A stretch of 31,445 nt of DNA from Pilasporangium apinafurcum (taxonomy: Eukaryota; Oomycota; Peronosporomycetes; Pythiales; Pythiaceae): the NCBI GenBank assembly GCA_001600495.1, contig BCKE01000080.1, positions 70,280 through 101,724 of the forward strand, given 5' to 3'. Below the pieces are notes generated by a model. That model ran no database searches. It saw only the letters and a program-made list of their open reading frames with translations, and was not told the origin of the DNA. Positions within the stretch are counted from its first letter, which is position 1. Every line of letters starts with the position of its first letter. Below are positions 4,326-25,641 of this stretch, piece after piece. The position numbers and the translations under genes were made by a program.

Positions 4326-5370
4326 TCAGTTGAAGCGGTTGCGATCGTGTGGTGCTTCGTAGTCGACAAATGGGCCCACCGGCATTTTGTTTATGTCGAT
4401 GTTGGTGTTCACCAAACCGTTCTTGATGTGTTGCCAATGCACTGTCGCCTTGACTGCTGGCATCTGATACAGATCTCGCAGGTACTAACCATACAAAACA
4501 ATTACAATAAATGAGTCGTCACCTTCACAGAGTTTATAAGACACTACGAAAGTTAAAGTCACGTACACTGACAATATTAGGGAAGGTGGTGAGGTTCTTC
4601 ACGTTGCTCTCACGCTGAGCCGTATCCAATCGAATGAGTAGACCAAATAAGCGCACGTCCGATTCTGTGATGGTATTGCCCGCCAAGTAACGCTTGGTTG
4701 ATAGAATTTCCTCTACTTCTTCCAAATATCTCAATCCAATCGTCAAACCCTCTTGATAAGTAACATCGTCACGCGCATACGCCATTTTGTAGAATCCGCC
4801 GCTAAGCGTCATCAACAAACCATCGTTCAATTTTTCAATCTCGGATACCAAGTGTGTAGGTAACAAGTTAATCTCAGAGGAGGCCAACTCGCCAAACCCC
4901 GAGTTAAACATGCGCAGAATGTCAGCCGATTCGTTGCAGACGATGGTTTGCTTCTTCTTGTCCCAGAGCAATGGCACCGAGAATTTTCGCGGCGTCTTGT
5001 CGACTAATTCGTACAGATCACGGACGAATTTCGTGTGCTTGACTGTGTCGGGGATGCAACCATCAGTCGAGAATTGCTGCCCATTGCGTGCAGTCATTAG
5101 AGGCGTAGTTTGCGGATCAAAAAATGCCCAGCCCTGGTGAGTATCACTCTCGTCGTCTGGCTTGGTCTTTTGGAAGACTGAGTGGGCAACGGAGATGTCA
5201 ACAACATTTTGCAGACCCTTCAGATTACGAGCGAGCAATGCCCGGCAGGCAAATGGGCAGGCGTAGGTAACGTATAAGTGATAGTGACTTTTTTCCGCGG
5301 GAAACGCAGCGTCTGCTTTGGGTTCGACGTAGTGAATGTAAGGAGGAACGGTAGCGGTGGTAGCGGCCAT
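4326..5370 (-). CDS. Glutathionyl-hydroquinone reductase (Xi-class GST), copy 1
   Basis: Encoded by complement(join(4326..4484,4567..5370)), 320 residues, the usual size for the ECM4/YqjG family. These enzymes reduce glutathionyl-hydroquinones with a catalytic cysteine, probably in the cytosol. The N-terminal thioredoxin-like domain has HLYVTYACPFACRAL, with the likely catalytic Cys38 in CPFA (usually CPWA). It is followed by PLLWDKK and NESADILRMFNS, typical of the family, then the helical domain with YLAGNTITESDVRLF. The 82-nt intron (GTACGT...GTTAG) lies before YLRDLYQ, at the same place and phase as in the other three copies. The C-terminus after that point differs from copy 4 and from the classical family ending. 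First of three head-to-tail genes. An Inr/FPR match lies 47-62 bp upstream. Confidence 0.93.
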
Positions 5371-5416
5371 GGTAATTGATAAAATGTCTTGATGTTGATT
5401 GTGCTCTCTGCAAGAA

Positions 5417-5432
5417 GAATCGAGAAATGAGG
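5417..5432 (-). promoter_or_regulatory. Inr/FPR-like core promoter of GHR copy 1
   Basis: The minus strand reads CCTCATTTCTCGATTC, 13 of 16 matches to GCTCATTYYNCAWTTT. It ends 47 bp before the ATG at 5370. Confidence 0.6.
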
Positions 5433-5740
5433 AGCTCGCAGTTGGTTACACTGAGGAAGAAGCGAGGTATTCTATGTTTTGCACTCATTTGTCCGTCCAT
5501 ATGCTACTCTTGCCCTTGATCGCGTGAAAAAAATGGAACAGAAAGTGGTGTGTTGCATCCCTTGATATGAAACAAAAGAAGCAAATCACTGTTGAACTCG
5601 CCTCACATGTACATAGCCATGGCCAAAAAAAGGAAACGAAATTACTAAAAGAACACCCCTCATCATTTGATTCACAACTTTAGCGTGTTCGATCTTAAGA
5701 TCTTGTCGACAGATTCAAGAAAACCGAAAAATGAGATTAT
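5433..5740. other. Intergenic spacer between GHR copies 1 and 2
   Basis: About 300 bp holding the 5' flank of copy 1 and the 3' end of copy 2. I see no further gene. Confidence 0.5.
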
Positions 5741-6781
5741 TTAATTGAGCTTGGTGCGATCGTGGGGGGCATCGTAGTCAATAAATGGACCTTCCGCGGG
5801 AGGAGCATCAGGCTTGTGATTTACAATACCGACCTTCAGATGTGGCCAGTGCACGGTCGCCTTCAACGCGGGGTTTTGATACAAATCGCGCAAGTACTAC
5901 CAGTCAACGAAATACACCAATACAAACACATACATCAGTCAAAGTATACAATAGACGAGAACAATCAATCAATGACAACATACTCCCACAACATTCGCAT
6001 ACTGTGTTAAATTTTGCTTCTCCGCCGCCTTCTGTCCCACATCGGCGCGAATGAGCGTATGGAAAAGTCGCACATCAGGCTCCGTAATCGTATTCCCAGA
6101 CAAGTAGCGTTTGGTACCCAACAGCTTGTCCAACTTGTCAATCGATTCGAAAAATGCTGCCGTACCTGCTGCAATCGCTTCTGGGTCTTGTGAAAATACG
6201 ATTTTAAAGTACCCTCCACCTACTTCGGCTACGATGCCATCGTTCAATGCATTAATCTCATCTTCACGGTCAGCAGGGACTAGATCCACACTCGATGGCA
6301 CTAAGTCCCGAAAGCCCGTGTTGAGCGTACGAAGGATATCAGCAGATTCATTCGAGACGATCGTCTTCTTCTTCTTGTCCCATAGAAGTGGCACTGTATA
6401 GCGGCGCGGTTCCTTATCAACTAATTCATAGAGATCACGCACAAACTTCACACCATTGATATGGTCAATGGTTGTGCCTTCAGTTGAATACTGCTTGCCG
6501 TTCGTAGCTGTGACGGTTGGCGTAGTTTCTGGATCGAAAAATGTCCAACCAAGGTGTGTATCATTTTCATCATCAGGCTTGGTTTTTTGGAAAATCGGAT
6601 GCGCCACGGACAGTCCAATGACGTCTTGTAATCCCTTCAAGTTGCGTGCACTCAATGCACGACAGGCAAATGGACAGGAATACGTGATGTATAAATGGTA
6701 GCGGTCCTTTTCAGCTGGGAATTCGGCATCCGCATTCGGTTGGATGTAGTGACGATACGGAGCAGGTTCAGATGTGGCCAT
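5741..6781 (-). CDS. Glutathionyl-hydroquinone reductase (Xi-class GST), copy 2
   Basis: Encoded by complement(join(5741..5896,5984..6781)), 317 residues. It has the same domain order as copy 1: ITYSCPFACRAL with likely catalytic Cys36, then PLLWDKKKKTIVSNESADILR, then the helical domain with YLSGNTITEPDVRLF. The 87-nt intron (GTATGT...GGTAG) precedes YLRDLYQ. The frame is open to an ATG at 6889, but that ATG sits beside a strong Inr/FPR match at 6870-6885 and would lie at or before the transcription start. The ATG at 6779-6781, in the context AAAATGGCC, is therefore preferred. The role is as for copy 1. It is a close tandem paralog, so functional overlap is likely. Confidence 0.93.
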
Positions 6782-6869
6782 TTTCTTCTTTTTTTGCGTG
6801 CGGATAGAGTTGCTTGAGCTTAAAGCTTCTCGTTTGGTTGTTTGGTTGATCGGTTGCTTGGATTCAGGC

Positions 6870-6885
6870 AAATTGGCAAGTGAGT
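6870..6885 (-). promoter_or_regulatory. Inr/FPR-like core promoter of GHR copy 2
   Basis: The minus strand reads ACTCACTTGCCAATTT, 13 of 16 matches to the oomycete consensus, including an intact CCAATTT flanking part. It decides the start of copy 2, because the longer open frame begins beside it. Confidence 0.6.
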
Positions 6886-6889
6886 CCAT

Positions 6890-7384
6890 TGTTGACTGTG
6901 TGTCAAACTTGGATCTCCTGTGATCACGTCAACATAACTGGTCCATTGTTGTTAATACCGGTTATTACCGATACTACTTCAAGTTGCTCAAACCTATGCT
7001 CCGTCATATCAAGTTTCCTATATTATATCAAGTATGAAACCTACTATACAGACTATTTTCATGATTGGCAATCGTTCCTTCAAGGTCAAGAGCAGCTTCA
7101 ACCAATGGAACTCATGGAAGCCACGTTGTCATTTGGAAGTTTAGTGTTTTGTGAAGATCCATGAATCAACAACAACAAAAAAGTTTGCATGAACAGAGTC
7201 TCTCTCGTTATATTCAACAACCAAGTATGTGAATTGGACATCTCCATTTGAACCCTTACATGGACAGTGCTGTGTTTATCTTCAATCAGAGCCAAGTACT
7301 TGCATAGACTGCCCCTTCCGCTAACGGATCGAGAGGAAAAGCTCATTAACCAGCTTCGACTTGCGCCTCCTTATTCTGCTTTTG
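6890..7384. other. Intergenic region between GHR copies 2 and 3
   Basis: Nearly 500 bp. Short open frames on both strands overlap each other and have no recognisable motif. I see no gene, repeat or RNA. Confidence 0.5.
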
Positions 7385-8412
7385 CTAAGCGACCGTTTGG
7401 CGACTGTGAGGTTTATCATAATCGACAAATGGTCCTTCCACAACGAAATCGGGTCTGGCATTGATGAATGTAAGATTTAAATGGTTCCAGTGCACTGTGC
7501 GTTTCAACGCTGGCATCTGGTACAATTCGCGCAAGTACTATAATGTATACACCAAACAATATCCAGGTGAATATGGTTTAAATGAGATGCCACAAAAACA
7601 AATCTTGCTATTTCACTTACCCCAACGACGTTCGGGAATTGCGTCAAGTTCTGTTTGTTGGTAGTGACTTGTGCCAAGTCAAAGCGGATCAAAATGTGGA
7701 AGAGTCGCACATCTGATTCGGTGATCATGTTGCCCACGAGGTAACGCTGCTTTGCAAGCAGCTCATCTGCTTTAGCAATCTCAGGGAAAATTAACCTCAC
7801 TCCTTCAGCATAAGCTTCTGGATCCTTTGCATGAGCAGCTTTCATGTACGCTTTTGTGATATCAGCCACAATGCCATTATTCGCCGCTTCAACTTGGTTC
7901 GCCAGATGATCTGGGTACAAGTCCACGTTTGATGCCACTAATTCGCGGAATCCGATATTCAATGTGCGCAAAATGTCGGCCGATTCGTTCGAAACGATCG
8001 TTTTCTTCCTCTTGTCCCACAGCAAAGGTACTGAATATGGCCGCGGCTCTTTGCTTACCAACTCATATAAATCACGTACGGATCTTGCATGGTTGACTGT
8101 ATCCGGAATACAACCAGTGGTGGGATACTCTTTGCCGTTTTCTGCTATGATTGTAGGAGTGATTGCTGGGTCTACAAACGTAAAACCGCGATGTGTATCA
8201 CTTGGATCATCAGGTTTGGTCCTCTGAAAGACTGGGTGTGCCACAGAAATGCCGATGTAATCTTCCAAACCTTTCAGGTAGAGTGCACTCAAAGCACGGC
8301 TAGCAAATGGGCATGTATAGGCGACATATAGATGGTAACGATCTCTCTCAGCTGGGAATTCGGCATCAGCGCTTGGTTCAATGGAGGAACGATATGGCGC
8401 AGGTGTTGACAT
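7385..8412 (-). CDS. Glutathionyl-hydroquinone reductase (Xi-class GST), copy 3
   Basis: Encoded by complement(join(7385..7537,7621..8412)), 314 residues. The active-site segment is VAYTCPFASRAL with likely catalytic Cys34. Copies 1, 2 and 4 have a second cysteine four residues on (CPFAC); here it is Ser. PLLWDKRKKTIVSNESADILR and YLVGNMITESDVRLF are conserved. The 83-nt intron has a consensus donor GTAAGT and ends in TATAG before YLRELYQ. The C-terminal exon matches copies 1 and 2 (VHW, GPFVDYD) more than copy 4. The start at 8412 gives an N-terminus parallel to copy 2. The upstream region has only a weak Inr candidate. Confidence 0.93.
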
Positions 8413-8599
8413 GTCGTGTTAGAATTCTTTTCTATTCGGATACTTTCAGAAAATAGTGGGCTTGTAGATTGCCAAGGAGGATTTGCAGCAACAATGGGTG
8501 ATAGTTTGGAACTGGTGTGTCGGTTGGATCGTGTCTATCCGACCTCTCTTACTGCATGAGTGTGATGTGGCTCGCGTCACAGATCAAATAGTTGCCCAG
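8413..8599. promoter_or_regulatory. 5' flank of GHR copy 3
   Basis: Short spacer between the GHR copy 3 start and the 3' end of the IS607-like relic. It presumably carries the copy 3 promoter, but no clear Inr/FPR match is visible. Confidence 0.3.
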
Positions 8600-8760
8600 T
8601 GTGAAAGGGAGGACCTGGTAAATAGCATATATGACACACTAAAGCTGTAGCTGCTATTGTTTGGGTTCGATTTAACTAGCAAAACCCAGCTAAGACTAGA
8701 CGACTGCGGAGTAGCCATCTTCGATACCTGGACTCGATGAATCCAGGAGAGTAGGTGCTC
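8600..8760 (-). ncRNA. Candidate guide-RNA scaffold / right end of the IS607-like element
   Basis: The DNA just past the RuvC-III motif of the nuclease relic stays similar to the second relic (19610-19690), although neither needs it as protein. It includes a hairpin at 8727-8747 (CCTGGA paired with TCCAGG). In the other copy the same place folds as TGGATTC-AAT-GAATCCA (19674-19690). A second possible stem (TGGGTT at 8662-8667 with AACCCA at 8683-8688) is seen in this copy only. In TnpB and Fanzor systems the guide RNA comes from the 3' end of the nuclease gene and the element's right end. That this is one is inference. Confidence 0.4.
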
Positions 8761-9940
8761 ATTCTTGAGAAAGATGTTTCTAGTAGCATTGACATCTCTA
8801 TCAAGGACGAACTTGCAGTGAGGACACTCCAATACTTTCTGGTGTTCCATCACGCGGTTGATTCTCTCACAGTGAGAACAAGTCTTTGTTGTATAGTTTT
8901 CCTCACATTCGATCATCTTTCCTTCACTCTTTTTCATCTTCTATTTCAGTAACTTCTTGAACTTGTAGTGAGACCACGTGAGTATTTTTCTTGACGCCTT
9001 GCTTGAAATTATTTTTTACTTGGACGCCAGTTCTGATGTACCAAAAGTTGGAAGAAGGACTCTGTGGTAGTTGTCTGACAACCACTTGGAGACTTTGTGA
9101 TGTGCATCTGACATTATCGCTTTCATCTGTTGAAAGATCCTGTAAACTCTCTCTCATGCGATGACGTTTTCGCTTGGACTTTTTTGAGATAACTGAGACT
9201 TGAGACAATCGATCAACAGACAGCGGTTGAACATTACGTTCTTAGTGCCGTCCATGCTTAACGTCATGTCATGAGGATCGCACAGTATGATGAAGCTACG
9301 AATTCCGGAATCATTTGCACACGTTCGAATGGAGTTTGTTTACTGGAATTCTTTTACTCGAGGAATGCAGATATAGTAGCGATCTTCTCGAGTTCGTTGC
9401 AGACGGACTGAATACTCGAGCGCTGGAAGTTGTTTTTTATGTTAATCCCTTCATTCTTAGAGAACCCAAAATATCGTGGAAAGAATCGAAGTTGGCCTTC
9501 AACATACTCTAGCGATTGAGACTGGATTTCAATCGAAGTCGAGTTATCTTTTCTTGACTTGAATCTCAACCCAGGAAAAGACGTCTTCTTTTCTTTATCC
9601 TTTTGAGATTCGAATTCAGCTTTCGATGAGTCAATAGCTTTGACGAAATCTGTGTAGGTTGAATTCATGGCCGGTTTCGGAACTTCAAGATGATATTTCG
9701 GAAGATACTTGTCCAACGAATGCTTTTGAGCGATCGGAAGATATTTCACATCTAGGTATTTCATTGACGACTTATAGCAGTCATCTCTCGACAGTTCGAC
9801 AATCTTGTTATAGATTGCTCGATGGGTATCAAACATCTTGCGGAGAAGTTGTTTCTGTTCCTTTGTTGGATCCAACCTCATTTTCAGAGTACTGTTTGGA
9901 CTTGGTTTGTCTTTCTTGCGCCTTTTAATCCTCGAAGATT
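8690..9940 (-). pseudogene. TnpB/Fanzor-type RNA-guided nuclease relic
   Basis: An almost complete TnpB-like protein spread over several frames. The N-terminal segment starts near an ATG at 9879-9881 (MRLDPTKEQKQLLRKMFDTH) or at an in-frame ATG further upstream inside tnpA. It runs to a stop at 9354 and holds VPKPAMNSTYTDFVKAI and FPGLRFKSRKD, as in TnpB. The next pieces are KQTPFERVQMIPE, then SFIILCDPHD, KSKRKRHRMRESLQ, LLPTFGTSELASK and the C-terminal TTKTCSHC...CPHCKF zinc ribbon. Candidate RuvC-II Glu lies at 8899-8901 and RuvC-III Asp (DRDVNATRNI) at 8794-8796. The region expected to carry RuvC-I (DPG) reads IPE before a frame change, so the first catalytic Asp appears lost. At least three frame changes and two in-frame stops follow. 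Confidence 0.85.
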
Positions 9941-9945
9941 GGAGA

Positions 9946-10353
9946 TCAGAGTCTTCTGAGCATTCCTGCCTTCCTTCCATTTCTTCTGACAACGAAGATG
10001 TTGACACGAGACCAGAGGTCTTCTTGGCGTTCTCTTGCTTCCATGTCTTCATTCTTGTCTTCATGAAGCTGTTGATCAGCGTGAACCGCGGCTTGGATGC
10101 TATGCTCTTTACACATTTGTGCGAGGAGTTCGTACTCAAATCAGTCTTGGATGGTAACCACAATGCTCGAGATCTGCTCTCTACGTGCCATTTCCATCAA
10201 TTTAGACAGTTCTGACTTGCTTTCCTTGAGACCGGAACCAATGTCGATCTTCTCGGGCATGCACTGCCATCGACTCGCATCCTTCCTCGAAAAGAAGGAT
10301 AGTGGAGAAAAGATCTCATTGCAGAGAATTGGAAAAGTTTCTATTTCTAACAA
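9946..10353 (-). pseudogene. IS607-type serine recombinase (TnpA) relic
   Basis: The minus-strand frame reads KIDIGSGLKESKSELSKLME, then ISSIVVTIQD, a TGA at 10141-10143, and FEYELLAQMCKEHSIQ. It ends with EDLWSRVNIFVVRRNGRKAG before a stop at 9946-9948. DIGSGL, the VVVT strand and the C-terminal NG-R-A-G segment are hallmarks of IS607 serine recombinases, which move the element by site-specific recombination. The segment that should read D-R-L-x-R-F around the stop is shortened. The N-terminal catalytic Ser motif and the DNA-binding domain are not readable upstream. The gene overlaps the start of the nuclease relic, as in IS607. Confidence 0.75.
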
Positions 10354-10363
10354 TAGGGATAAA

Positions 10364-10935
10364 AAAACACGTCAAAGTATATCCCACCAGTAGGATAAGT
10401 GAGGGAATAAAGGGTAAGGAATAGCTCCGATATCCAATTCTATCATCCATCGCAGATCTTGGACACGAAGAAGGTTGGAGCGGCTGTTGATCTAACGGAA
10501 TTGGAACGATAAAAACACGTGCTTTATCTTCTTTCGGCTGTATGAATGTGGGCAGTCAACTTTTATCGCTACTCTGATGCTCGCTATCTTCTCTGGGGGG
10601 AGGGGTATGGACTCAAGACACAGCTGGTGAATGGGCATATGTAAGTGACGTATAGATGGTAGCGATCGCTCTCAGTTGGAAATTCGATGTCAACGTTTGC
10701 GCGTCAGCTACTATCGACTATTGTGAGGAAGTTGGGCTTTGACCAAGCATGCTTATCAAGCTCAGCAAGACCTGCAGAAGCCGAACCAATCGGCTCGCTT
10801 GCATCCGCCACGTCTGCTAGTCAATTGCAAAACCGGTGAATACCGGTAAAAACGTCCATGGCTGACGCGATCAACGTGTTCTGATTAGGTAAACCTGTCA
10901 AAATGCTAATCGCCTCCTCTGGCGGGCTCTCTATC
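10364..10935. other. Intergenic DNA with a GHR fragment
   Basis: Flank between the IS607-like relic and GHR copy 4. It holds the GHR fragment at 10614-10695 and a short ACCGGT-GAAT-ACCGGT repeat near 10833. No intact gene is seen. Confidence 0.5.
10614..10695 (-). pseudogene. Fragment of a GHR gene (N-terminal active-site region)
   Basis: The minus strand reads DIEFPTESDRYHLYVTYICP followed by FTSCVLS. This matches the FPAE-DRYHLYVTY-CPFACRALS region of the neighbouring GHR genes. Nothing homologous follows on either side, so it is a remnant of a lost tandem copy. It lies in the same orientation as copies 1-3, just upstream of the oppositely oriented copy 4. Confidence 0.8.
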
Positions 10936-10985: not shown

Positions 10986-12115
10986 ATGGCATCGCTGCGG
11001 AATTCCATCCAAAATACTCCGGACGCCCAATTCCCACCAGGTATGTTAATGTGATTACTACGGGACATCATAGTTCTTCATTACTTTGTATAGCTTGTTG
11101 GTGCTCATCCTTATTTCTGATATATGTACCATCAAGAAAAGAATCGCTACCACTTGTACGTGGCGTTGGGGTGTCCATTTGCATGTCGAGTGCTCGCGGC
11201 GATCAATTTGAAAGGCCTGAACGATATCATTGGGGTGACAGTTTGCCACCCAGTGTTTCAACGCACACGGCCGAATGACCCAAACGATACGCATAATGGT
11301 TGGGTATTTGTGGACCCAGAGGAAACACCGTTTGTCACTGGAACAACTGGGTTCGGTCGCTACTCGTCCGCTGGGTCATCTGTCGATCCACTTTACAACG
11401 CCAAGTTCATCCGTGATCTGTATGAGAAAGTGACGGACGTACCCACTCGATACTCGGTGCCATTGCTCTGGGACAAGAAAACCCACACGATCGTCTCAAA
11501 CGAATCAGCCGACATGATTCGCATGTTTAATACTGCGTTTGAGCACTTGGTACCGTCCAAAATCGATCTGTACCCGCTGCATCTGAAACAAGAGATCGAC
11601 GAAGTCAACGAGTGGGTTACAGAGCATATCAACAATGGCGTCTACAAGTGTGGGTTCGCCAAGGAGCAGGACATTTATGACGAGGCATTTGATAATTTGT
11701 TTGATGCGCTTGATCGTGTGGAGTGTATTCTCGACAAGCACCGGTACTTGGTCGGAAATCAGATCACGGAGGCGGATTTGCGACTGTTTGTCACGCTCAT
11801 TCGCTTTGATGCAGTCTATGCCATCCAGTTCAAGACCAACAAGAAACTCATCCAGCAATATCCCAACCTCTTCAATGTAGGCTTTACTCGGCTTTATATG
11901 TCCATGTCTCATTTGCTGATTACTATCTTTCTTTTGGTGTAAACTAGTACGTCAAAGATCTCTACCAAGTACCAGAAATCCAGGTAACGGTCAATATGGA
12001 CCACATCAAGCTGACTTACTTTGCATCACAAGTCAACTTGAACCCTTTTGGCCTTATTCCAAAAGGCCCGGACGTTGATTACTCTGCTCCACATAATCGT
12101 CACCGTTTTCAATAA
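10986..12115 (+). CDS. Glutathionyl-hydroquinone reductase (Xi-class GST), copy 4
   Basis: Encoded by join(10986..11040,11137..11876,11948..12115), 320 residues. The short first exon (MASLRNSIQNTPDAQFPP) joins across a phase-1 intron (GTATGT...ATCAAG) to EKNRYHLYVALGCPFACRVL, with likely catalytic Cys31. A start inside the intron at 11124 would lose this match to the paralogs. PLLWDKKTHTIVSNESADMIR and YLVGNQITEADLRLF are typical. The 71-nt second intron sits at the position shared with copies 1-3. The final exon (MDHIKLTYF, then NPFGLIPKGP) keeps the classical ECM4/YqjG ending that copies 1-3 have lost, so this may be the ancestral-type copy. It is divergent in orientation from the other three. 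Confidence 0.93.
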
Positions 12116-23738: not shown

Positions 23739-25641
23739 TCAGTTTTTGATTTCGAGTACCAATTCATTCTTTTTCCTCGTGAACGCCTCGAGTCTCCTCT
23801 TTTTCTTCACCTGGTCGACGAGTAGTCTCAAAATATTGATTGCGGTGTTGATGCCACGGTCTCACAATGTGCGATGACATTCACTATTTTTGCAGTGTCG
23901 CACACCATAAAGACCATCGCTGACAACTTTTCCGTCAAAGACGAACCCCTTCATCTTCTTGTGACAAGCACAACACAGCTTGCTCGTCCTGAACTCGTCC
24001 ACATCAACAACACGACACCTGGAACCAATTTGCTTCCGTAGGGTCGTTGTGAAAACACCAATATTGCCTTTAGCTGAGCTTGTGAAACTTGCATCTCCAT
24101 ACGCGATAACAGTTCGTTTATTACCATCTGTAAGGCTCTTGACTACCTTCTCGTACGTCTGTTGTCGATGGATGTAGGTCGACCATCGTAGCCTCTTCAT
24201 CCTCCTTGATGAATACACGTCAAGAAGANGATCTAAATACACGAGACAAAATCTCATCCGTTTCAAATAGGAGACAAGGTTCGCAACTTTTGCCGAAGGA
24301 ACGTTTTCATTGAAGGTTTTGATGTCAGGCTGAGTATCAATCCACTTTTTCGTCAACTTTGTTCGTCTGTGGTAGCCGCACTCTCTGTAGAAACGACCCT
24401 TCGACCAGTAGATGACTTCATGTTTCACGTTCTCTCCTTTCGGTTTTTGCAGCGTAGCCATGCTTTCCTCTTTGTAGACAACAGCAGTGAAGATCTTCTT
24501 TCTTCCCGGGTCCAAACCGATGATCCGGTCTTCAAGAGAAAATTTCTCTTTTTGCTCTCTCGCGGGAAGCTTTGGACGGGAGATTGTCACACCAACTGAC
24601 ATACCGTCGATAGAGATGAAGTGCTCAAACTCCTTTCGCTGGGCTTTGGTCACAAGACCTATATTGAAGTACGTGCGCCATAACTCAGCTTTGTCGGCGT
24701 AAAGCTCAACAGGGTCACCCAAAGTCTTAGCGAGTTCCTTCAGGAAGGTGGTGTTGATCTTGATGAAAATGGGTCTGAACTGTTTCTGTGGAAGCAAAGA
24801 CCAGACTCGGCAACCCTTCATTCCATCATCTACGTGAGCTTGTATGTCTTTCAGCATTGTGTGGAGAAAGGGCATGTAACATTCCGGAGAGCTCTTCAAC
24901 TTGAGCGGCAGCGGTTCGATCTCGTTTCTCATTTTATCCGATAATTCCTGCATCCAAACAATCTCCTCAGCAGGGATGGGATACTTCTTGAACCTGGAGT
25001 ACGTGGGGATCAGGGCAGATAAGCTATCCTGAGTTTGGGTGCTTGCACGGACCAACAGTAAAAACAGCGCTCTTGATTATCTTACCTTGGTGCTTTTCAA
25101 AATAGTCACTGTTATGAAGACGTATCTGCAAGTGCATCCACTTACACAATCGGGAGTAGAACGTCAATCGGTTGCTGACTTGAAAATTCTGCCTCGCTTG
25201 TTGAGCGATCATAACTAATATCTGAGCCATGTGGGGTCTTCGTTCTGTCAGTTCATAAACTGAAGGGTGTTGGGTCCTGTAAAGGTCTAGACTGATCTCC
25301 AAGTCAGAATGGACCTCTCCGCTGCCGCCCAAGTTGGCTATTGCAGATGAGCATTGATTGAAAAAGTTATTATCCAATGGAGGAAGTTCTTCGCCAGCTT
25401 CCAATAATCGCAGAACATGGACGGATGCCAGCATAGATGTCTCACATGCTATTCTTGAACAAAGTCACACAGCCTCATCAATCTTTTCCGCCATTTTTTT
25501 GTCTTTGCAAAACTTTCTCTAGCCAGTTTTCACCGTTGTGTAGACTATTTGCTTTTGTCGAGCTTTCTGCTCCGCATAATCCGGGCGGGCTTTTCGCTTT
25601 TTAGCGGTGTTTTCTTCAGTACCGTCGCTCGTTGATGCCAT
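23739..25641 (-). pseudogene. Fanzor nuclease relic, lineage distinct from the 8.7-10 kb copy
   Basis: A TnpB-descended, RNA-guided-nuclease-type protein of about 630 codons. The N-terminus (ATG 25639-25641) has a nuclear-localisation-like AKKRKARP. The first frame is interrupted by TAG at 25519-25521 and TGA at 25465-25467. It changes frame near 25030-25085, where a GTAAGA donor-like site lies, then continues open to 23862. RuvC-I Asp (IIGLDPGRKK) is at 24510-24512 and RuvC-II Glu (VDEFRTSKLC) at 23994-23996. The zinc ribbon is CCAC and CKNSEC. A TGA at 23862-23864 stops the protein directly before DRGINTAINI, the RuvC-III segment, whose Asp is 23859-23861. The frame then runs on to 23739. 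One N lies at 24230. The long N-terminal region and DEFRTS wording suggest a Fanzor1-like type; that subtype is inference. Confidence 0.85.

What the first reader, a model, noticed from the sequence alone, without database searches (positions are those of the whole stretch)
8600..10363. IS607-type element in an oomycete-like genome with both recombinase and Fanzor/TnpB relics
A serine-recombinase relic (DIGSGL, VVVT, RRNGRKAG) sits directly before, and overlaps, a TnpB-like nuclease relic on the minus strand, as in prokaryotic IS607. Eukaryotic Fanzor genes are known to travel with IS607-type recombinases. A clear overlapping tnpA-tnpB pair in this kind of genome would document the ancestral arrangement and may point to intact copies elsewhere.
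Basis: partly seen in the sequence, partly recalled or inferred. Interest (0 to 1): 0.8.

Follow-up and report, generated by a model that had tools for sequence, protein, structure and literature searches.

The report
Bacterial-type transposon captured by TTAA element
In a water-mould (oomycete) genome, the dead remains of a bacterial-type jumping gene pair sit inside a different kind of transposon, so that the same genome seems to show both the original and the captured form of an RNA-guided nuclease element.

Summary
On the minus strand a serine-recombinase remnant (9946-10269) overlaps a TnpB/Fanzor relic (ATG 9980 to about 8689) by 35 nt. NCBIfam transpos_IS607 matches the recombinase piece (1.2e-5; 6.8e-15 in a fuller copy). 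TnpB of a fuller copy (C62) carries the published Fanzor2 fingerprint. Both relics recur together in other copies.

The interpretation needs correction: the mobile unit is no longer an IS607. The window copy (8651-10413) falls in a clade (99/97) that lost about 28 nt of the IS607 left end and 50-60 nt of the right end. It has a short terminal inverted repeat and TTAA flanks; 1 of 22 insertions tested gave an empty paralogue, with a single 4-bp site. Older copies in the genome still end in GG, as IS607 does. At least 130 TTAA-type left ends exist.

Best reading: an IS607 tnpA-Fanzor2 cassette captured by a TTAA-targeting (piggyBac-type) element and moved in trans. Both genes are broken here; none of 111 genome matches is a complete open tnpA. 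Fanzor2 capture is published for an alga and molluscs, so this is a new variant of a known kind. The responsible transposase is not identified.

The parts
8651..10413 (-). Body of the captured element (1763 bp): IS607-derived tnpA and tnpB relics between a left arm and a right end with a short imperfect inverted repeat
   Evidence: Ends by comparison with 23 other copies with both ends defined; letters read directly
10414..10417 (-). Left flanking tetranucleotide TTAC, taken as a decayed TTAA target-site copy (inferred)
   Evidence: 22 of 24 copies have TTAA on at least one side, 15 of 24 on both; the window is one of the two without
8647..8650 (-). Right flanking tetranucleotide CTAC, taken as a decayed TTAA target-site copy (inferred)
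10270..10413 (-). Transposon left arm: terminal CCTTTATT and an imperfect copy of the palindrome CCCACCGGTGGG of other copies
   Evidence: Pattern of the C62 left end found 130 times with up to 3 mismatches, reversed-pattern control 0; alignments
9946..10269 (-). tnpA relic: later half of an IS607-type serine recombinase with one in-frame stop; HTH and catalytic-serine segment missing
   Evidence: NF033518 1.2e-5 on 10144-10269; genome search 2.1e-6; homologous DNA in fuller copies
8689..9980 (-). tnpB/Fanzor2 relic with a change of frame near 9440 and four in-frame stops in the later part; the stop found at its end in C62 is lost
   Evidence: PF12323 1.9e-9, PF07282 2.1e-14; translations
9946..9980 (-). 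35-nt overlap of the tnpA end with the tnpB start
8651..8800 (-). Right end, in the place where IS607 TnpBs encode their guide-RNA scaffold; about 50-60 nt shorter than in GG-ended copies; RNA function inferred by analogy only
   Evidence: analogy with PMC10711439; conserved fold only weakly supported

Best explanation
An IS607-type element with tnpA (serine recombinase) and an overlapping Fanzor2-type tnpB once moved in this oomycete lineage by recombination at GG dinucleotides. One copy became enclosed between the ends of a cut-and-paste transposon that inserts at TTAA (piggyBac-type target), losing its own two ends. From then on it was moved in trans by a TTAA-specific transposase made elsewhere in the genome. 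TnpA was no longer needed and was partly deleted; internally deleted forms such as the window copy, and 0.5-kb MITE-like forms, spread. The window copy is a dead member with both genes broken. Shown: the gene pair, the clade, the changed ends, the TTAA flanks, one empty site, the many truncated copies. Inferred: capture by an existing TTAA element, the class of transposase, mobilisation in trans, and any nuclease function.
For: Identity: (C62: DPG-x135-E-x6-CxxC-x14-CxxC-x6-D; best solved relative 9b0l, TnpB-like L79, 6.3e-25). GG-ended copies in the same genome: GG at 2 of 3 located left ends and strictly at 9 of 14 right ends picked by eye. TTAA type: TTAA on both sides in 15 and on at least one in 22 of 24 copies with both ends defined; TTAACC(T/G)TTATT at both ends. 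Empty site: joined flanks of the C19 copy (L069) match C101 and C78 over 124 bp at 78%, with one 4-bp TCAA where the filled site has TTAA on both sides. Loss of IS607 ends: similarity to GG-ended copies starts 28, 28 and 27 nt inside their left ends (three compared), and the right end stops early. The nine copies labelled TTAA-type by at least one end form one clade, 99/97. 77 of 111 tnpA matches are truncated; 33 of the 77 have one of the 100 listed (of 130) TTAA-type left ends within 1.2 kb upstream, 31 of them at 99-143 bp, against 2 of 34 fuller matches within 2 kb; downstream control 0. A piggyBac-type gene exists: PF13843 2.1e-41 at C5 with a 546-aa open frame.
Against: One empty site from 22 TTAA-type insertions tested, at 78% identity and reading TCAA; none for the window insertion. 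The three piggyBac loci share no terminal repeat with the element that I could see. The left arm was found only in elements of this kind among the 40 scored of 528 candidates, so no separate carrier is shown. Nine small derivatives with the same left arm do not show the TTAA-type right end in the stretch aligned (0 of 9), and their left ends read TTAA in only 2 of 9, one letter off in 5, not aligned in 2. C1:1168 lies outside the clade but has the TTAA-type right end; its last third looks recombined from the clade, and a tree with it and C121 in the clade is rejected (p 4.7e-5).
Confidence: 0.75

Rival explanations
1. A plain IS607 element that moved by its own TnpA and has decayed; the TTAA ends are chance.
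For: tnpA and tnpB overlap and are of IS607 kind; older copies have GG ends.
Against: TTAA on at least one side in 22 of 24 copies and a 4-bp single empty site; IS607 targets GG and leaves no duplication (PMC6188088, passages); 77 of 111 tnpA matches lack the N-terminal part.
Confidence: 0.06
2. TTAA is a fixed part of the element ends, not a target duplication; an altered recombinase or unknown enzyme moves it.
For: TTAA is at the left end of 18 of 19 aligned MITE-like copies and only one empty site supports duplication.
Against: The empty paralogue keeps one 4-bp site exactly at the join; L073 reads TTAT on both sides, and in other copies the two flanks differ.
Confidence: 0.13
3. Accidental neighbours: tnpA and tnpB relics from separate insertions.
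For: Both are broken in the window.
Against: C62, C55, C24a and C24b carry both in the same order inside one set of ends; the reading frames overlap by 35 nt.
Confidence: 0.01
4. The TTAA ends arose on an IS607 copy by deletion and chance creation of a terminal repeat, without a pre-existing carrier, and were then used by a resident TTAA-specific transposase.
For: On the right side only about seven letters (ending in TTAA) replace the IS607 sequence; no carrier without IS607 sequence was seen (40 of 528 candidates scored).
Against: The left arm of about 507 bp has no match to the GG-ended copies compared.
Confidence: 0.2

Closest known systems
Fanzor2* elements (Fanzor2 in cut-and-paste transposons of Chloropicon primus and molluscs; PMC10711439, sections 13, 23, 25 and passages read)
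   Same: Fanzor2 with DPG and displaced glutamate in an element with (degenerate) TIR and target duplication, of IS607 descent
   Different: Here the target is TTAA, an IS607 tnpA remnant is still attached, GG-ended relatives survive in the same genome, and MITE-like forms spread; host is an oomycete. Whether the published cases keep tnpA was not seen in what I read
IS607 family (PMC6188088, passages read)
   Same: TnpA homologous to the IS607 serine recombinase; tnpA and tnpB overlap; older relatives keep GG ends
   Different: The window's clade has lost the IS607 ends and has TTAA flanks; the window copy lacks the N-terminal half of TnpA
Mimivirus TnpB-like protein L79 (PDB 9b0l)
   Same: Best solved relative of the C62 TnpB, 6.3e-25
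   Different: Viral (virus name recalled, not from the call); its element was not examined
Phytophthora infestans protein P0118 (PF00239 + PF12323)
   Same: tnpA and tnpB joined in one gene model; 56% identical over 101 aa to the C55 tnpA piece
   Different: DNA ends not examined
piggyBac-type transposons
   Same: TTAA target; terminal repeat begins with CC (general knowledge, and title/abstract of PMC7351741 in listing for TTAA)
   Different: No piggyBac transposase inside; no shared terminal repeat found

Membership tests
IS607 family | TnpA with N-terminal HTH and serine-recombinase domain | tested here: not met
   Window has only the part from DIGSGL on. Copies C1, C121 and C2:968 keep HTH-like and RVSS/RVLS segments in broken form, by eye
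IS607 family | tnpA and tnpB overlap | tested here: met
   35-nt overlap; 'often overlap' in PMC6188088
IS607 family | GG at both ends | tested here: not met
   Window TTAC/CTAC, its clade TTAA. Older relatives: GG at 2 of 3 left ends, strictly 9 of 14 right ends
IS607 family | No target-site duplication | tested here: not met
   4-bp site for one member of the TTAA type; none found for the window. GG-ended relatives: no empty site for the 3 copies tried
Fanzor2 | DPG in RuvC-I and glutamate six residues before the zinc finger | tested here: met
   Met in the C62 copy. The window relic keeps E-x6-C but reads DSG
Fanzor2 | HTH_OrfB_IS605 and TNB zinc ribbon | tested here: met
   Window; C62
Fanzor2* | TIR and target duplication of a cut-and-paste element | tested here: met
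   TTAACC(T/G)TTATT at both ends; one empty site
Fanzor2* | RNA-guided nuclease activity | not testable with these tools
   No expression or assay data; weak fold conservation at the right end
piggyBac superfamily | TTAA target duplication | tested here: met
   one empty site only
piggyBac superfamily | Encodes, or shares ends with, a DDE_Tnp_1_7 transposase | tested here: inconclusive
   Three PF13843 loci, one with an open frame; no shared terminal repeat in those loci with about 1.5 kb on each side

The most novel reading that the evidence does not exclude
A whole IS607 tnpA-Fanzor2 unit switched transposition systems inside one genome lineage and then gave rise to many short elements that keep the ends and the guide-RNA-coding right end, so that dispersed copies could supply guides in trans to a few intact Fanzor2 proteins.
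Probability: 0.18. Interest if true: 0.82.

Novelty: new variant of a known kind. Interest (0 to 1): 0.6.

Why it matters
How bacterial IS607 nucleases became part of ordinary eukaryotic transposons is argued in print from distant species (PMC10711439). Here GG-ended and TTAA-ended forms, and the breakpoints between them, can be read in one genome, so the steps of a capture can be ordered and tested. It also shows that a tnpA-tnpB pair in a eukaryote should not be taken for a working IS607 without looking at the ends.

Tried and rejected
Albugo was my first guess at the host from genome size and base composition; rejected, since the window sulfate transporter is 54% identical to Albugo laibachii against 67-68% to Globisporangium. 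TTAA copies as IS607 with a changed core dinucleotide: rejected for the conserved 4-bp flanks and the empty site. A link to the resident piggyBac genes by shared ends: looked for, not found; the one strong match was an IS607-type right end beside the C12 relic (80% over 81 bp), and one TTAA site beside the C5 gene reads TTAACCTTTGGCC, sharing nine letters but facing away from the gene. Conserved guide-RNA fold in GG-ended copies: covariation term -0.26, two pairs with changes on both sides, not used as proof. Selection: codon-position differences in tnpB among the nine TTAA copies are 0.128, 0.104, 0.152, mild and not tested for significance. Empty sites: none for the window insertion, for 21 of 22 other TTAA insertions and for 3 GG-ended insertions. 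Small derivatives L042-L050 were at first taken for simple deletions; 7 of 9 run into a segment that looks like another Fanzor and none shows the TTAA-type right end in the stretch aligned. Structure prediction was not used, because its rule does not list loci of this genome search. Gilbert and Cordaux 2013 is not held; I know it by recall and by its citation in PMC6188088. The copies were picked by a match that includes the TTAA letters, which favours TTAA somewhat. The 14 right ends were picked by eye; weaker lines of that list (such as L049, L050, L054) were left out, and L032 would make 10 of 14 if shifted by one base.

Full report
What was checked. The minus strand between 8500 and 10450 was translated in three frames. 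Pieces were searched against Pfam and NCBIfam. The tnpB part has HTH_OrfB_IS605 (1.9e-9) and the TNB zinc ribbon (2.1e-14). The tnpA part 10144-10269 has transpos_IS607 at 1.2e-5. The next piece, 9949-10140, has no match of its own, but its DNA aligns with a fuller copy, C55, whose 132-aa piece matches transpos_IS607 at 6.8e-15, Resolvase at 2.1e-6 and a solved serine recombinase (3lhf) at 1.1e-9. The tnpA frame ends at 9946 and a tnpB ATG lies at 9980, so the two overlap by 35 nt.

Copies in the genome. The window lies in a 36.5-Mb assembly of 136 contigs. A DNA search with 8400-10500 gave 65 matching pieces, with 40 of 766 candidates scored. Copy C62 is 2494 bp between its ends and contains both genes; C55 is 2453 bp. 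Against C62 the window copy lacks about 725 bp, which removes the HTH and the catalytic-serine segment. The same break is seen in C24a, C24b, C2, C7, C3 (L021) and nine small derivatives; C41 breaks at the same place on the left but further on at the right. C62 has a 504-codon open tnpB frame whose plausible start is 72 codons in, with the Fanzor2 fingerprint of PMC10711439 (section 23 read).

Ends. Two kinds exist. Fourteen right ends of old copies, picked by eye, share the form CATATGATCTCTTGAGG, strictly with GG in 9 of 14; of three left ends located, two start GG. IS607 inserts at GG without duplication (PMC6188088, passages). The window's clade instead starts TTAACCTTTATTCC and ends AATAACGGTTAA. 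In 24 copies with both ends defined, TTAA is on both sides in 15 and on at least one side in 22; the exceptions are L073 (TTAT on both sides) and the window (TTAC and CTAC). Of nineteen MITE-like copies aligned, 18 have TTAA at the left end, and 13 of the 18 that keep a right end have it there. The nine small derivatives are less clear: TTAA at 2 of 9 left ends, and no TTAA-type right end in the stretch aligned.

Empty site. Joined flanks of 22 TTAA-type insertions were searched (8, 14). One, L069 on C19, matched C101 and C78 across the join at 78% over 124 bp. There the empty paralogue has one 4-bp TCAA in the place where the filled site has TTAA on each side. This supports a 4-bp duplication at TTAA. 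The two empty places are alike and count once. The window insertion gave no empty site, nor did three GG-ended insertions.

How the two forms relate. In the tnpB region of 25 copies (some partial), the nine copies labelled TTAA-type by at least one end form one clade, 99/97, with the window copy branching first. C1:1168 has the TTAA-type right end but falls outside; its first 1000 alignment columns are closest to C121 (82-96% per 100 columns), the last 500 closest to C62 (85-94%), so it looks recombined. Holding it and C121 in the clade without C50 is rejected (p 4.7e-5). Similarity between GG-ended copies and C62 begins 27-28 nt inside the IS607 left end in the three copies compared, and the right end of C62 stops about 50-60 nt before the IS607 right end.

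Spread without tnpA. The IS607 transposase profile has 111 matches in the genome (131 candidates scored), none above the family cut-off; every match that starts before profile position 40 contains stops, and introns are not considered. Of the 111, 77 begin at position 86 or later, as in the window. With the 100 left ends listed (of 130 found), 33 of those 77 have a left end within 1.2 kb upstream, 31 of them at 99-143 bp; only 2 of 34 fuller matches do within 2 kb; the downstream control is 0. So the truncated form multiplied. Some of these are the small mosaic derivatives, whose right end differs.

Mechanism. I infer that a TTAA-specific transposase moved these copies in trans. A piggyBac-type gene with a 546-aa open frame exists at C5, but no shared terminal repeat was found. 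The right end lies where IS607 TnpBs encode their guide RNA, and PMC10711439 reports that TIR and target duplication appear to become part of that RNA in Fanzor1s and captured Fanzor2s (passages). Whether that happens here is untested.

What is known. Fanzor2 in cut-and-paste elements is reported for Chloropicon primus and molluscs (PMC10711439; sections 13, 23, 25 and passages). Bao and Jurka 2013 appear to list Fanzor2 in three Phytophthora species and name serine recombinases in some Fanzor2 elements, among them ACa-1, ACa-2 and ISvMimi_1 (PMC3627910; passages and section 13). My searches for Fanzor with piggyBac or TTAA (15 of 511 papers listed), IS607 with oomycete (2 papers) or Phytophthora (3), Fanzor with oomycete (8 of 9 listed) and Fanzor with Albugo (1) showed no title or abstract that reports a TTAA-type capture of IS607 or Fanzor2 in an oomycete; the library holds only open-licence papers and I did not open most of those listed.

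Verdict. The finding is real and its gene assignment is right. Its unit is better described as an IS607-derived, TTAA-flanked element with both genes broken, a new variant of a published kind.

Noticed in passing
window 23862-25076 (-): A second, Fanzor1-like relic with GLDPG and an E-x6-C arrangement (VDEFRTSKLCCAC) by eye; only weak profile matches (PF07282 0.02; guided_TnpB 0.021), and the motif script did not match it.
   Followed up: partly
window 4534-5445 (-), 5969-6928 (-), 7504-8418 (-), 11121-11942 (+): Similar glutathione-S-transferase-like frames around the element (Pfam run on two of the four), with a 70-bp fragment at 10630-10699 80% identical to 8306-8375.
   Followed up: partly
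L005 1477-3192 (-) and C135:18007-18549 (-): Another TnpB with DPG but, by eye, the glutamate at the canonical place (IIFLEKFE) and alanine where Fanzors have the displaced one; an IS607 tnpA relic overlaps its start region and IS630/Tc1-like pieces lie beside it. PMC10711439 regards eukaryotic copies of that kind as mislabelled bacterial sequences; a 659-bp part recurs at 88% on the 875-kb contig C7 (L001).
   Followed up: partly
L091 1-1801 and the start of L005 (C135:13500-15377, -): A long open Fanzor2-like frame (626 codons or more) with a lysine-rich N-terminal part; one search lists further TNB matches in open frames of 500-800 codons.
   Followed up: no
L042-L050: Small derivatives with this left end and a tnpA-tnpB stretch; seven of nine continue into a segment reading GIDPG or close to it, like another Fanzor: mosaic elements.
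   Followed up: partly
L061 2386-4603 (C3:607385-609602) and L035 1412-3022 (C4:431676-433286): Head-to-head inverted pairs of element copies forming palindromes.
   Followed up: no
L007 (C26:256373-259570): A TTAA-type copy (1181 bp) directly beside the right end of a GG-type copy.
   Followed up: no
C1:1168 (L056): Recombinant copy: body like C121, last third like the TTAA clade, with repeats near its left side.
   Followed up: partly
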